A DNA stretch of 64,000 nt. Source: Ceratotherium simum simum (taxonomy: Eukaryota > Chordata > Mammalia > Perissodactyla > Rhinocerotidae). Both the position numbers and the translations under genes were made by a program. The stretch covers positions 2,494,822 to 2,558,821 of the forward strand of contig NW_004454217.1 in assembly GCF_000283155.1 (NCBI RefSeq), written 5' to 3'. The notes beneath the pieces are model-generated. The model was given only the letters and a program-made list of their open reading frames with translations. It was not told where the DNA came from and ran no database searches. The stretch's first letter is position 1; every line of letters begins with the position of its first letter. Shown here in pieces: positions 22,155 through 63,850 of this stretch.

Positions 22155-22978
22155 TCAAAAATTGAAAGAATATATACAAATGACCAGTAAGAATATAAAA
22201 AGATGCCCAACATCATTAGCCATTAGGGTAATGCAAATCAAAATCACAATGAGATACCACTTCACACCCACTAGGAAGGCTATAATCAAAAAGACATATA
22301 AAAGTATTGGTGATGTAGAGAAATTGAAACCCTCATATAATGCTGGTAGGAATGCAAAATAGTACAGCTGTTTTGGAAAATAATTTTGCAGTTCCTCAAA
22401 AAACTAAATATAGGCCAAATGTGACCCAATAATTCTACTCCTAGGTACGTACATAAGAGAAACGAAAACATATGTTCACATAAAGACTTGTACACAAATA
22501 TTCATAGCAGCATGTTCATAACAGGCAAGAAGTGGAAACAACCCAAATCTCCATGAACTGATGAATGGATAAATAAAATGTGGTATGTCCATACAATAGA
22601 ATATTATTCAGCAATAAAAAGGAATGAAGTACTAATACATGATACAACATGGATGAACTTTGAAGACATTTTGCTAACTGAAAGAAGTCAGTCACAAAAA
22701 ATGGCATATTGTATGATTCCATTTACATGAAATGTGCAGAGTAGGCAAATATAGAGAGAAGGGAAGTGTAATAGTGGTTGCATAGGGCTGGAGAGGGAAA
22801 ATGGGGATTGATTGCTAATGGATATGCGGTTTCTTTTTGAGGTGATGAAAATGTTCTAAAATTAATCATGGTGAGAATTGCACACATGTTTGAATACAGT
22901 AAAAGCCATTGAATTGTACACGTTAAGTGGGTGAATTATATAGTATTTGAATTATATCTCAACAAAGCTGTTAAAAAA
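22155..22978 (+). mobile_element. L1 LINE 3' end, 5'-truncated
   Basis: The sequence follows the end of L1 ORF2 and its 3' untranslated region in sense: 'gcaaatcaaaatcacaatgag', 'cccaataattctactcctagg', 'caaatattcatagcagcatg', 'gaatggataaataaaatgtgg', 'aatattattcagcaataaaaa' and a 3' end at 'ctcaacaaagctgttaaaaaa'. Short open frames on both strands are remnants or shadows. The many substitutions indicate an old, inactive copy. Confidence 0.92.
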
Positions 22979-37789: not shown

Positions 37790-38105
37790 TTTTTTTTTTT
37801 TTTTTTTGTGAGGAATATCAGCCCTGAGCTAACATCCATGCTAATCCNNNNNNNNNNNNNNNNNNNNNNNNNNNNNNNNNNNNNNNNNNNNNNNNNNNNN
37901 NNNNNNNNNNNNNNNNNNNNNNNNNNNNNNNNNNNNNNNNNNNNNNNAGTTGTATGTCATAGCTGCACATCCTTCTAGTTGCTGTATGTGGGACGCGGCC
38001 TCAGCATGGCTGGAGAAGTGGTGCGTGGGTGCACGCCCGGGATCCGAACAATGGCCGCCAGTAGCAGAGCGCACACACTTAACGGCTAAGCCACAGGGCC
38101 CGCCC
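37790..38105 (-). mobile_element. ERE SINE, long form, antisense, containing the assembly gap
   Basis: Poly(T), 'gaggaatatcagccctgagc', then 100 N, then 'agttgtatgtcatagctgc', 'ctagttgctgtatgtgggac' and the tRNA head ending 'aacggctaagccacagggcc'. A perfect 16-bp target-site duplication, CCAGAGTCACTTCTTT, occurs at 37774-37789 and 38106-38121. It is nearly the same as the copy at 53550-53865, which suggests the same young subfamily. Confidence 0.93.
37848..37947. other. Assembly gap (100 N)
   Basis: Exactly 100 N, the usual placeholder for a gap of unknown or small size. By comparison with the sister ERE at 53550 the missing part should be about 95-100 bases of SINE body including an inner T run. 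No gene is likely to be hidden here. Confidence 0.97.
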
Positions 38106-42453: not shown

Positions 42454-43475
42454 AAAAATGAGTAAATGATCTGAACAGGCACCTCACCAAAGAAGATATA
42501 GAAATGGAAAATAATCATAGGAAAAAATGCTTGAAATTTATCCTATCATATATTTATCATAATCATATATCATTAGGGAATCACAAATTAAAACAACAAT
42601 GTGATAGCACTCCATACCTATTAAAATGGATAAAATCCAAAAAATTCACAGTACTAAATGCTGGTGAGGGTATAGAGCAACAGAAATTCTCATTCTTTGT
42701 TAGTGGGAATGAAAAATCATACAGCCACTTTAAAAGAGAGCTTGGCAATTTCTTTCAAACTAAACATACTCTTATCATACAATCCAGCAATCACTCTTTT
42801 AGCTACTTAGCCAATCGAATTGAAAACTTATGTCTATACACAAACCTGCACACAAATGTTTATAGCAGCTTTATTTATAACTTCCCAAAGCTGGAAGAAA
42901 CTAAGATATTCTTCAACAGGTGAATGGATAAACAACCTGTGGTATATCCATAAAATGGAATATCACTCAGCAATAAAAAGAAATGATCTATTACGCCATG
43001 AAAAGACATAGAGGAACCTTAAATGCATATTGATAAGTGAAAGAAATCAATCTGAAAAGGCTACCTATTGTGTGATTCCAACTATGTGACAGTCTAGGAA
43101 AGGCAAACTATAGAGAAAATTATAGGATCAGTGGTTTTAGGGATTGGGGGAAGAAGGGGAGACATGAATAGTTGAAGTACAGAGAATTTTTAAGGTAGTG
43201 AAACTATTCTGTATGATATGTAATTGTGCATACATGACAATATGCTCTTCTCAAAACCCAGAGAGCTGTACAAGAGTAATCTTTAATGTCAACTATTTAT
43301 TAATAATATATCAGTATTGGTTCACTAAATGCACAAATGTACCACACTAATGCAATATGTTAATAATAGAGAAAACTGTATACAGGGATATATGGAACTC
43401 TGTACTATTTGATCAATATTTCTTGCAATTTTTGAATGTAAAACTGTTCTAAAAATAAAATCTATTAATTTAAAA

Positions 43476-58060: not shown

Positions 58061-58890
58061 TCTCCCTCTCTAAACCCCTTTCTATATCTCTTGGGCCACA
58101 TGATGCCCAACATAGCTTTTTATGAAGTTCCACAATTCAGTTCATCTGTTAGGCAGAGATGTATTTTCTAATTGGAATTTTAATATTTCATGTTCACCCA
58201 AGGTACTGACCCTTGAACTCTAGGATTCCTGTCCCACTCATCTTTGTTCTCTGACAGCTCTGATAAATAACCCATTTTCTTGCCCCTTTCACAGCTCCCA
58301 AGCCCTTGACAATACCCACATTCAAAGTATGTTCACTCACATTCTTGACTCACTTGGGCTACAGGAACAACAGACTTAGGACATACGTGGGAGGCAGAAT
58401 CCATGCAGGTAGATGTAGATCCCACTATGGCCCTTCCTGATACTATCCTCTCTTCCATCCTCTCCTCCCATACCACTCATTTTATCATTATTGGCTTATA
58501 CTTCGCTTTCTTCAGTTGATCCTTTTATCTTAACTTCCAATACCTATTTACTTTTACATGAGAAAATCATGACTTGGAGAGTCATGCCCTACATACGAAT
58601 TTACAGAAGCCGCCATATATTTTTCCTGGACATTAAGTGCAAATCTAAAATACTTGATCTTCCCTTGTAATTCAACCCTCATTCAATATGTGGATGACCT
58701 CCTTCTTTGTTCTAAGACATTCAGAAATTCTTTACATGACATCCAGTACTTATTAAAAGACTTAGCTCAGAAGGGCCATTCGGTCTCAAGAGATAAAGTT
58801 CAGCTCTGTTGCCCTCAAGTCTATTATTCAAGTCATGATATTCCGCCAGAGGAAAAAACCTGATCCCCAGATCACATCAAGACCACACTT

Positions 58891-59699
58891 TTTTTTTAAA
58901 TTTTTTGTTTATTTCAGTAACATTGGTTTATAACGTTGTATAAATTTCAGGTGTACATCATTATACTTCTATTTCTGCATAGATTACATCATGTTCTCAT
59001 GTTCACCCCCCAAATACTAATCACGATGCATCACCACACACATGTGCCTAATTATCCCTTTTGCCCTCCTCCCTCCCCCTTTCCCCTCTGGTAACCACAA
59101 ATCCAATCTCTGTCTCTATGTGTTTGTTTGTTGTTGTTGTTATCTACTACTTAATGAGGGAGATCATACGGTATTTGACCCTCTCCCTCTGACTTATTTC
59201 ACTTTGCATAATACCCTCAATGTCCATCCATGTTGTCACAAATGGCTGGATTTCATCGTTTCTTACCGCTGAGTAGTAGTCCATTGTGTATATATACCAC
59301 ATCTTCTTTATCCATTTGTCCCTTGATGGGCACTTAGGTTGCTTCTAAGTCTTGGCTATTGTGAATAACGCTGCAGTGAACACAGGGGTGCACGTATCTT
59401 TTCGCATTGGTGTTTTCAAGTTCTTTGGATAAATACCCAGCAGTGGAATAGCTGGATCATATGGTAGTTCTATCCTTAATTTTTTGAGGAATCTCCATAC
59501 TGTTTTGCATAGTGGCTGCACCAGTTTGCACTCCCACCAGCAGTGTATGAGAGTTCCCTTCTCTCCACATCCTCTCCAACACTTGTTGTTTCCTGTCTTG
59601 TTAATTATAGCCATTCTGACTGGCGTGAGGTGATACCTCATTGTACTTTTGATTTGCATTTCCCTGATAGTTAACTATCAGGGAAATGCAAATCAAAAC
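58891..59699 (-). mobile_element. L1 LINE 3' end, antisense, inserted into pol, with fold-back 5' end
   Basis: The plus strand begins with a T run and then the reverse of the L1 3' untranslated region ('tcaggtgtacatcattatac', 'ccctccccctttcccctctgg') and ORF2 end ('atccagctattccactgctgg' in reverse). Direct duplications ACCACACTT (58882-58890) and ACCATACTT (59700-59708), differing at one base, flank it. The uninterrupted target would read ACTT then AACAA, matching the TT/AA preference of L1 endonuclease. The 5' end is truncated and finishes in a perfect palindrome (59647-59698). The few internal changes suggest a relatively young insertion. Confidence 0.95.
59647..59698. repeat. Perfect 52-bp palindrome at the L1 5' end
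   Basis: The 26 bases at 59647-59672 are exactly the reverse complement of 59673-59698, with GTTAAC at the centre (59670-59675). The left arm is the antisense L1 end; the right arm is the same L1 words in sense. The rest of pol resumes two bases later. It can be drawn as a snap-back of the L1 cDNA 3' end onto itself. Confidence 0.97.
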
Positions 59700-60270
59700 A
59701 CCATACTTAACAACCTCTCATCTGAAACCAAGAGATAACTTCAAGGCTTTCTGGAACTGATTGATTGGCTATCGTGGAATGTGGATTTCTAACTTCTCTG
59801 CTATAGCATACTCTTTATATGGCATGACTAAAGAAATTGTTATCTGAACCTCTGAAATGGGATTTGCCTTCTGTAACGTCGCTTGAATCCCTAGGATCTC
59901 CCTTTCTTCCATCCCACTTAGGGCTTCCTGACTACTCTTTGCCTTTCTCCCTATTTGTTCATGAAAGAGTAGGACACACCTTAGGGGTTTTATCTCAAAA
60001 ACATAATGGAAATCAGAGGTCCATTGGATATTTCAGTCTTACTCTAGATCTTGCATCTCAACATTTTCCTCCCTGCTTTCTAGCAGTAGTGGCAACTGTG
60101 AAATTAGTTCAAGCCACAGCTGACCTTGCGCTATGTCATACCCTGAACATCAATGCCCCTCATGCAGTTTGGACCCTTCTCGTAACTGAAAATACCCAAC
60201 ACTTTTTAACCTCTCAGTTCTCCTGTTATGAGATTCTTCTGCTCTCTCCATCTCACATCACTATCCACCC

Positions 60271-60825
60271 ATGTCAAAATCTCAAGTATGTTACCCTCTT
60301 CCAGCTAAAGGACAGCAGCATGATTACATTATAGACACTCAAGCCTCAATCCTCTCTCATCCCAACCTTTTAGAAATCTTCTTTGCAAATCCAGACCCCA
60401 CTATCTTTGTTGATGGTTCATATCTTTATATCTCAGAAAGAAGTTTTCAGGCAGGATATGCCATTACAGATTTTCAAAATCCCGTAGAATTTAAGTCTCT
60501 AGTTGGTGCAAAGTCAGCTTGGATCACTGAATTTGTGGCTCTCATAAGAGCCTACGCTTTGGCTAAAGGTAAGAAATTTAACTTCTATACAGACAGTAGA
60601 TATGTTTTTGAGGTAGTACTTGATTTTGGTATGTTATGGAAAACCAGAGGATTTAAGATAAGAGCTAGGACTTCAATGGAAAATGGAAAACAGTTGTCTG
60701 ACCTCTTAGAAGCTTTATTACTGCCAACGGGGACAGCCATACTTAAGATAGAAGCTTATAGGGGCCACAAAACCCCTGAAACAAAAGGAAATCCATTGGT
60801 TGATGGATATAGCAAACTGTTATAA
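60271..60825 (+). pseudogene. Retroviral RNase H domain, open frame retained
   Basis: A 184-residue open frame holds an unbroken RNase H domain. The four acidic catalytic residues can be placed: Asp in 'FVDGS' (60412-60414), Glu in 'WITEFVAL' (60529-60531), Asp in 'YTDSRY' (60592-60594) and Asp in 'NPLVDGYSK' near the end. The histidine of the substrate loop is in 'YRGHKTPET'. The frame survives by chance between broken neighbours; no promoter or initiation context of its own is seen. Confidence 0.85.
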
Positions 60826-62109: not shown

Positions 62110-63850
62110 ACAAAATCTCCTACAATTCCCTTAACTTCTTCCTAGTCTCATGATTTTTATTGTCCTCTTTGGCTTCACTATCCTTCTCTATCCCTCCTCA
62201 TCACCTTGCAATCCATTCTCCACATTTCAACTGTAACTTTCCATAATGAGCTTTATATTGTACTATCTCTTCCCCTCTCACACTAGCTGTTCCGCCTTTA
62301 ATAATTCCTCCATCCCTGAAAGCATCTTAGAACCTATGGCATTCCTTCACTCAATTTGTAGCACAATCTCACAACTCTATTTTTGATTGCTATATATACT
62401 ATATATAGTATATATACTCTATACTATATATAGTATACTATATACTATATATAGCTATATATACTCTATATACTCCTTTTCCTTTGGAAGCCTCTGGTTT
62501 CCCCTAAATTCCTATACCTGTCTCAGATTTCAGGGCATCTTTTGAGTCATCACACAGGGGTCGTTTTGCTTTCTATTTTAGATTTCAAAAGGAACTCCTT
62601 TCAACTTCAAGACTTTTCAAAAAAGGCAATCTATGCTTCTACTGTAACGTAACCAAGGACCCTTTCATGGGCCTTAAGTATTGCAAGGTACTTTGCAAAT
62701 GTACCTACTTTGCCACAAATACACTATTACCATGGGAGGCAAAAGTACGTATTTCTTGCCTTGTCGTATGAATCTAATAGACCTAGATGATCCTAACCAT
62801 AATTTTACGTGGTATGCTTGGAACTGTTCATTTTGTAAGCAACAACTTGATCACTTTCCTCTTCCCAATTGGATGAGACAACATCTCTATCAAAAAGGTT
62901 CAAATGAATTTGAAGACGCAAATCCATGGGACAATTATTTAATGAACCCTGGGCTCTAATGAGGCATACTTGTGTCTATTGGTCTCTGCCTGCTAGTTGG
63001 ACTGGATCCTGTTACCTAGCTAATCTAATTAGTGCTTATCAAATTTTTAACCAGACTGCCTTCTTTTTTCACCTGAACTATTCTATTACCTCTAAGTTTT
63101 CCAGGCACTAGATGAACCAAACTATCTACACTGACATGTTACAACTACAAACTTAGGCACATAATACCAGCCCCACAAGGAGGCTGCAATTTTCCTTTCT
63201 CAGCAGGTTCTCAAGAAGTCTTAGAAGAAGAGGGTAAGAAATTGAGAGTAAATCTAAAAGACTTGACTGCTGCAGCAGATCATGTATGGACAACCTTCGT
63301 GCCTGGAGTTGTTATTGTGTGGGCCACTTAGGAAGTTTATCAGAACTCCTTCATCTTCCTCGCTCTACTCTAGGAAATATCATGGCTGTGGGCAGTATTA
63401 CCAGAACTACCAACATCATTGCCAAAGAACTACAGGACTCTAGTCGTCCTTCACAATCGTCTGGTATTGCACATGATCCTGGCTTTCTGAAGGGGCACTT
63501 GCTCAGTGCTTGGAAAAGACTGCTGTGTATGTTTCCAGAATCTTCTCTGATGTCTATGCCATCATCAAAAACATTCAGACCATCAACCAGGAAATTTGTC
63601 ACATAGCCGTTGATACTCTCACTCTACCATCCAAATAAAGATGTTTCAGGCCCAACATCTTGGAATCTTCTCAACTGGCTTCCTCCAAACCTCATATCTC
63701 TGTTTTACTCACTTATTCAACCTTTAAAACTTATTCTTTTTGTTTTATTCCAACATATATATCTTATTAAATTCTCGATCTCTAAGATTCTCCACCAGCT
63801 CTCAGTCTGACAGCACCCTCACTGTATTATAGAGGTAGTCCTTCAAGGCC
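62110..63850 (+). pseudogene. Retroviral env remnant with a CX6CC motif
   Basis: An N-terminal hydrophobic segment near 62145-62200 could be a signal peptide. Surface-subunit-like words are legible ('NFTWYAWNCSFC' in 62681-62959, and 'LPASWTGSCYLANL' in 62926-63111). A transmembrane-subunit CX6CC motif (C-S-V-L-G-K-D-C-C at 63500-63526) is seen in a different frame from the 106-residue open frame around it. Hydrophobic segments near 63690-63780 fit a membrane anchor. Stops and frameshifts throughout, and an AT-rich palindromic block at 62389-62476, show it is non-coding. Confidence 0.8.
62389..62476. repeat. (TA)n palindromic low-complexity block in env
   Basis: Multiple TATATATA/CTATATATAG units in both orientations over almost 90 bases, able to form many hairpins. 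It interrupts the env remnant and probably arose by microsatellite growth. Confidence 0.9.

What the first reader, a model, noticed from the sequence alone, without database searches (positions are those of the whole stretch)
59647..59698. Perfect 52-bp palindrome made at the 5' end of an L1 insertion
The L1 inside the retroviral pol ends in 26 bases followed immediately by their exact reverse complement. A 5'-inverted L1 made by twin priming usually has an inverted piece from elsewhere in the element. Here the inverted piece is the neighbouring sequence itself, as if the growing cDNA had folded back and copied its own end. Perfect arms imply that the event is recent relative to the surrounding provirus. 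Such an end is rarely described.
Basis: partly seen in the sequence, partly recalled or inferred. Interest (0 to 1): 0.75.

Follow-up and report, generated by a model that had tools for sequence, protein, structure and literature searches.

The report
Twin-primed LINE-1 end forming a palindrome
A common jumping gene (LINE-1) landed in an old viral gene and its front end carries a short mirror copy of itself; this looks like a very short case of a known insertion accident (twin priming) rather than a new mechanism.

Summary
The 52-bp zero-spacer palindrome is real. It is the 5' end of a minus-strand, 5'-truncated LINE-1 inside a retroviral pol. In 20 of 20 other copies printed from the same genome, L1 runs on past this centre without an inverted arm, with G where this copy has C at 59646; the arms were probably 27 nt at birth (59646-59699). 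The inverted arm lies between the L1 end and a 9-nt target duplication (8 of 9 match), so it belongs to the insertion.

At least 10 of 59 other copies have an inverted L1 piece at the 5' end; in 6 of those 10 the second cDNA starts within about 25 nt of the first one's end. One, L052, is another fold-back-like end (spacer 5). The centre, TTAA, is self-complementary and part of the L1 consensus. Best reading: twin priming in which both cDNAs stopped at one template position and joined through TTAA. Overlapping twin-primed cDNAs are published (PMC12016303). A strand folding on itself needs a loop; none is present. Near-perfect arms do not show recency. Known mechanism, extreme geometry.

The parts
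58882..58890 (.). Target-site duplication, copy next to the L1 poly(A) (ACCACACTT; last two T shared with the poly(T) run)
   Evidence: best ungapped match between the flanks, 8 of 9; an uninterrupted relative aligns with both flanks around this place
58891..59674 (-). 5'-truncated LINE-1, direct piece (first cDNA), tail on the left, ORF2 C-terminal part; 59671-59674 (TTAA) shared with the inverted piece
   Evidence: matches residues 1099-1207 of solved LINE-1 ORF2 protein, E 2.2e-56; repeated copies in the genome, 3.9% from the sampled consensus
59646..59672 (-). Direct arm of the palindrome (27 nt at birth; 59646 now differs from the L1 consensus)
59671..59674 (.). TTAA, self-complementary centre, part of the L1 consensus; candidate microhomology joining the two cDNAs
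   Evidence: both alignments to the consensus cover these 4 nt; other copies read GTTA followed by A (12) or G (8)
59673..59699 (+). Inverted L1 piece (second cDNA, 27 nt; 29 nt counting the whole shared centre)
   Evidence: 59671-59699 matches the consensus in reverse, 29 of 29;
59700..59708 (.). Target-site duplication, copy at the 5' side of the L1 (ACCATACTT)
   Evidence: the nick reads TT/AAGT in L1 orientation
58654..58827 (+). Retroviral reverse transcriptase remnant left of the L1
   Evidence: Pfam RVT_1, 24.2 bits, below the curated cut-off of 29.6
60400..60807 (+). Retroviral RNase H remnant right of the L1
   Evidence: Pfam RNase_H, 55.1 bits, cut-off 25.8

Best explanation
A twin-primed LINE-1 insertion with a very short inverted piece. 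The first cDNA was primed at the bottom-strand nick on the poly(A) tail and ran about 780 nt up the L1 RNA. The 3' overhang of the second (top-strand) nick annealed inside the same RNA, about 27 nt short of where the first cDNA ended, and primed a second cDNA. Both cDNAs ended at the same RNA position, either at a broken RNA 5' end or because the second reverse transcriptase ran up behind the first. Their identical ends finish in TTAA, which is self-complementary, so they could anneal to each other and be filled in, giving a palindrome with no spacer. Shown: two L1 pieces in opposite orientation, the shared TTAA, their place inside a target duplication, and other inverted copies with overlapping pieces in the same genome. 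Inferred: the order of events, the shared stop, and joining by TTAA.
For: L1 lacks the inverted arm at this centre in 20 of 20 other copies. The arm lies exactly between the L1 end and a 9-nt target duplication, and a 77%-identical relative of the right flank shows no insertion there. Among 59 other copies at least 10 have inverted L1 pieces at the 5' end. With the window that makes 11 events; the second cDNA starts 3-29 nt inside the first in 6 of them (window 29, L069 23, L052 22, L044 16, L049 7, L081 3) and about 6 nt beyond it in one (L062). Inverted pieces range from 16 to 1014 nt, so 27 is within the range. The inversion junction shares 4 nt (TTAA) in the window; in the 10 others it shares 0-4 nt, except two with 1 and 3 extra nt. 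The target copy that the insertion left untouched, read downstream of the nick, fits L1 antisense best of all 2181 positions at 15 nt (11 matches) and of 2178 at 18 nt (13 matches) at a place spanning the outer edge of the inverted piece, as expected if it annealed to the RNA there. Published: overlap of the two cDNAs in 42% of germline 5' inversions, overlap median 12 bp (PMC12016303, passages); microhomology often found at the ends and at the inversion junction of 5'-inverted L1 (PMC2912911, passages).
Against: An overlap of 27-29 nt is above the published quartile range of 4-17 bp. The target duplication is 9 nt with one mismatch; 42 of 200 random window pairs reach its score when free to slide, and 5'-inverted L1s mostly have 10-20 nt (PMC4245944, passages). 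The target/L1 fit is best only at 15 and 18 nt; at 9 and 12 nt 26 and 14 positions do as well or better. When G-U-type wobble pairs are allowed the boundary is not the best place (not in the top four at 12 and 15 nt, fourth at 18 nt, this copy's own sequence). The target side has two extra nt relative to simple extension of a 9-nt primer (own reading). The same target homology would also suit capture of a folded end.
Confidence: 0.8

Rival explanations
1. Fold-back (snap-back) of the growing L1 cDNA: its 3' end folds on itself, is extended, and the new end is joined to the target.
For: The inverted piece is the neighbouring sequence itself. A second copy, L052, has a fold-back-like end with a 5-nt spacer, which a hairpin could give. 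Short fold-back inversions, most about 5-34 bp, occur at DNA breaks in yeast (PMC11724301, passages). Target homology at the outer edge would also help capture of a folded end.
Against: No spacer: a strand cannot pair its last base with the next one. The yeast cases use a loop (41 nt). Of the 10 other inverted copies, 9 are not fold-back-like; they have longer inverted pieces, partly overlapping, abutting, separated or starting in the poly(A).
Confidence: 0.12
2. Dual priming or template jump: the second cDNA used a different L1 RNA molecule, or the first enzyme jumped onto the end of the second cDNA, giving the same product.
For: Two sampled copies, L039 and L051, have inverted pieces that begin in the poly(A) and lie wholly within the direct piece, close to the dual-priming scheme of PMC2837659 (passages).
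Against: Needs a second RNA ending at the same place, or an extra jump. It cannot be told from twin priming by the sequence here.
Confidence: 0.05
3. Assembly or library artefact (chimeric fold-back read).
For: The assembly has N runs at the L1 in 3 of 20 sampled loci (L071, L072, L085), and one run of 100 N in the window.
Against: An artefact would be expected to run back through the whole L1, not stop after 27 nt at a target duplication; the two arms already differ at one base. No raw reads were available.
Confidence: 0.03

Closest known systems
Twin-primed (5'-inverted) LINE-1 insertions with overlapping cDNAs (Ostertag and Kazazian 2001, not held, known through citations; PMC12016303; PMC12350158; PMC5668948)
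   Same: Two pieces of one L1 in opposite orientation, poly(A) end, target duplication, shared sequence at the inversion junction; overlaps or duplications at that junction are reported (passages)
   Different: The inverted cDNA is only 27 nt, lies wholly within the overlap, and ends at the same base as the direct cDNA, so the junction is a palindrome
Short fold-back inverted duplications at DNA breaks (yeast, PMC11724301, passages)
   Same: Size range and inverted duplication of adjacent sequence
   Different: Those form through inverted microhomology and a loop; here there is no spacer
Fold-back inversion upstream of somatic L1 target sites (PMC10191854, passages: n = 3, plus n = 1 with an L1 inversion too)
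   Same: Inverted duplication at the 5' side of an L1 insertion
   Different: There it is described as upstream of the target site and put down to additional DNA synthesis; here the duplicated sequence is L1

Membership tests
Twin-primed LINE-1 insertion | Direct 3' L1 piece with a poly(A) end | tested here: met
   the A-run is short (T9 at 58889-58897, then AAATTTTTT on the + strand)
Twin-primed LINE-1 insertion | Inverted piece of the same L1 at the 5' side | tested here: met
   29 of 29 to the consensus in reverse
Twin-primed LINE-1 insertion | Target-site duplication bounding both pieces, endonuclease-like nick | tested here: met
   9 nt, 8 matches, nick TT/AAGT; weak alone (42 of 200 random pairs when free to slide), strengthened by touching both ends; relative without insert
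Twin-primed LINE-1 insertion | Microhomology at the inversion junction | tested here: met
   TTAA, 4 nt
Twin-primed LINE-1 insertion | Microhomology between target overhang and L1 RNA at the start of the inverted piece | tested here: inconclusive
   Best of 2181 and 2178 positions at 15 and 18 nt, but not at 9 or 12 nt, nor with wobble allowed
Twin-primed LINE-1 insertion | Two cDNAs made separately on one RNA | not testable with these tools
   Only the product is visible
cDNA fold-back (snap-back) | Spacer (hairpin loop) between the arms | tested here: not met
   0 nt between the arms
cDNA fold-back (snap-back) | Natural inverted microhomology in L1 that closes the hairpin around a loop | tested here: not met
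   the only sequence shared at the junction is the central TTAA, which leaves no loop

The most novel reading that the evidence does not exclude
Zero- or near-zero-spacer palindromic L1 5' ends are a recurrent, under-counted outcome: two reverse transcriptases on one RNA run to the same end, and the products join where that end is self-complementary. Inverted pieces under about 30 nt would probably escape callers that map the two parts of an insertion separately. Two such ends are seen here (window, spacer 0; L052, spacer 5), the second among 59 copies that were not chosen for it.
Probability: 0.25. Interest if true: 0.5.

Novelty: new member of a known kind. Interest (0 to 1): 0.3.

Why it matters
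It places an odd-looking palindrome within a known insertion pathway, and gives a cheap test of how the two twin-primed cDNAs are joined: if palindromic ends centre on self-complementary L1 words, end-to-end annealing of two cDNAs is the likely step. It also corrects two tempting inferences: that inverted neighbouring sequence excludes twin priming, and that perfect arms show recency.

Tried and rejected
Rejected: L1 naturally containing both arms (20 of 20 printed copies do not). Chance. Perfect arms as a clock (and own arithmetic). A fold-back made after the insertion, because the arm sits inside the target duplication. L084 (extended as L090) first looked like another palindromic end (arms 13, spacer 2), but L1-like sequence resumes beyond it, so it is not counted as a fold-back end.

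Led nowhere or only a little: viral contigs hold no match to an L1 pattern. Fold-back anchors elsewhere in L1: one found only the L052 place, one found none; so three anchors, gave 1, 1 and 0 places. Two further patterns (one centred on TTAA, one on another anchor) were sent repeatedly and never answered. Pfam did not name the L1 peptide; solved structures did. Literature searches: 5 of 5 listed; 22 of 22; 6 of 6; 20 of 44; 15 of 44; 15 of 831. I saw titles and openings of abstracts there, and passages of eight papers; none that I saw names zero-spacer palindromic L1 ends. That is not proof of absence.

Limits of the counts: of the 20 copies, three end in N (L071, L072, L085), L080 has no end in range and L083 is unclear; they stay in the denominator of 59. 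The L1 reference covers 2.2 kb, so inverted pieces from further up are missed; 10 of 59 is a lower bound. The 59 are the copies most similar to the window's query pieces, not a random sample; the 20 copies are among the 39.

Full report
The palindrome is there. Arms 59647-59672 and 59673-59698 are 26 nt, fully complementary, with nothing between them. Twenty simulated windows of the same dinucleotide make-up gave longest arms of 9 to 12 nt at spacers up to 12. A pattern built on its arms occurs at one place in the assembly.

It is the 5' end of a LINE-1 on the minus strand. The 109-residue frame 59348-59674 (minus) matches LINE-1 ORF2 protein chains of solved structures at residues 1099-1207, best E 2.2e-56; Pfam gave nothing for it. 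The surrounding frames, searched as separate pieces, match reverse transcriptase (below the curated cut-off), RNase H (above it) and integrase (below it). The L1 is thus nested in a decayed retroviral pol. A search with the right flank found one relative, 77% identical over query bases 22-152; it has no insertion at this place.

What L1 looks like without the event was read from the same genome. In 20 of 20 copies printed the sequence continues CCCTGATAGTTA, then A (12) or G (8), and on through L1; none has the inverted arm at this centre. Four of these 20 do carry inverted pieces further up (L049, L051, L052, L062). All 20 have G at the position equivalent to 59646. The window has C there, and the right arm still has the complement of G at 59699. 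The inverted piece matches the consensus over 29 of 29 positions, 59671-59699, and the palindrome was probably 54 bp when made. A majority consensus from 39 copies puts this copy at 3.9% divergence. Two 27-nt arms at that rate should show about 2 differences (own arithmetic); one is seen, so the arms say nothing special about age.

The inverted arm is part of the insertion. In L1 orientation the 5' flank has AAGTATGGT next to the inverted piece and the 3' flank begins AAGTGTGGT after the poly(A), 8 of 9 matching. That score is reached by 42 of 200 random pairs when the match may slide, so it is weak on its own; its value is that it touches the insert at both ends, at a TT/AAGT nick. The inverted arm lies inside it.

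Comparison with other ends. I examined 39 copies with 5 kb each and 20 more with 1.5 kb (three extended). At least 10 of 59 have an inverted L1 piece at the 5' end; five of the 20 short loci were unreadable or unclear and the reference is 2.2 kb. Coordinates relative to 59672, positive towards the L1 5' end (differ by a few nt, and for L084 by 37): L044 direct end 170, inverted piece 155 to 978; L049 239, 233 to 295; L069 165, 143 to 742; L081 -504, -506 to -462; L062 255, 262 to 1275; L052 41, 20 to 35; window 2, -26 to 2. In L039 (14; -788 to -477) and L051 (170; -778 to -690) the inverted piece begins in the poly(A) and lies wholly inside the direct one. In L079 (-440; 239 to 405) and L084 (-519; -131 to 84) there is a gap instead. 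So in 6 of 11 events, window included, the second cDNA starts 3 to 29 nt inside the first, and in one more it starts about 6 nt beyond. In 4 of 11 (window, L052, L039, L051) the inverted piece lies wholly within the direct one. Exact target duplications of 10 to 18 nt were found in 5 of 5 other events where both edges were given to the script (L044 14, L049 10, L052 11, L062 10, L081 18); the same script found no exact repeat over 5 nt for the window, whose duplication has a mismatch; L039, L051 and L084 lacked one edge, and L069 and L079 were not tried.

L052 (also fetched as L005 and L012) is a second fold-back-like end: 16-nt arms, 5-nt spacer, with an 11-nt target duplication. It is the only genome match to its anchor pattern. 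A third anchor found none. With exact anchors these are lower bounds.

Mechanism. In twin priming the overhang of the second nick primes inside the RNA. The target copy untouched by the insertion, read from the 3' flank, fits L1 antisense best of 2181 positions (15 nt, 11 matches) and of 2178 (18 nt, 13 matches) at -33, a stretch that spans the outer edge of the inverted piece (-26). Against this, at 9 and 12 nt 26 and 14 positions do as well or better, and with wobble pairs allowed other places score higher. At the centre both cDNAs include TTAA, self-complementary, so two identical 3' ends can anneal. This accounts for the missing spacer, which a single strand folding on itself does not. The fold-back inversions of PMC11724301 used a 41-nt loop (passages). 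That both cDNAs stopped at one place is inferred; a broken RNA end or a second enzyme running up behind the first would each do it.

Literature. PMC12016303 (passages) reports overlap of the two cDNAs in 42% (44/106) of germline and 15% (28/181) of somatic 5' inversions, overlap median 12 bp, and detects inversions from two areas mapped in opposite orientation, which would probably miss a 27-nt piece (inference). [quoted passage not shown] PMC12350158 (passages and one section) shows duplications and deletions there in a figure legend. PMC2912911 (passages) reports microhomologies at the ends and the inversion junction. PMC4245944 (passages) gives 10-20 bp duplications for 5' inversions. PMC10191854 (passages) reports rare fold-back inversions upstream of the target site. 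PMC2837659 (passages) describes dual priming. The 2001 twin-priming paper is not held.

Verdict. A real and tidy feature, best read as a twin-primed LINE-1 whose inverted piece is so short that it is all overlap. New member of a known kind; interest modest.

Noticed in passing
L012 oriented 836-872 (same copy as L052 and L005; G000:C67): Second fold-back-like L1 5' end, 16-nt arms with 5-nt spacer, 11-nt target duplication.
   Followed up: yes
L039 and L051: Inverted L1 pieces that begin in the poly(A) tail and lie wholly within the direct piece, as in the dual-priming scheme.
   Followed up: partly
L090 777-804 (same copy as L084): A palindrome with 13-nt arms and a 2-nt spacer at an inverted L1 piece, after which L1-like sequence resumes; perhaps a local template switch.
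   Followed up: partly
window 62386-62472: TA-rich array with several overlapping inverted repeats (arms up to 18 nt with a 7-nt spacer).
   Followed up: no
window 59699-59850: This proviral stretch has only one other scored match in the assembly (77% identity, contig C44), suggesting a low-copy retroviral family.
   Followed up: partly
window 37848-37947: Run of 100 N (assembly gap).
   Followed up: no
window 22216-22691 and 42572-42979: More diverged L1 fragments (about 69% and 64% identity to this L1) in the opposite orientation.
   Followed up: partly
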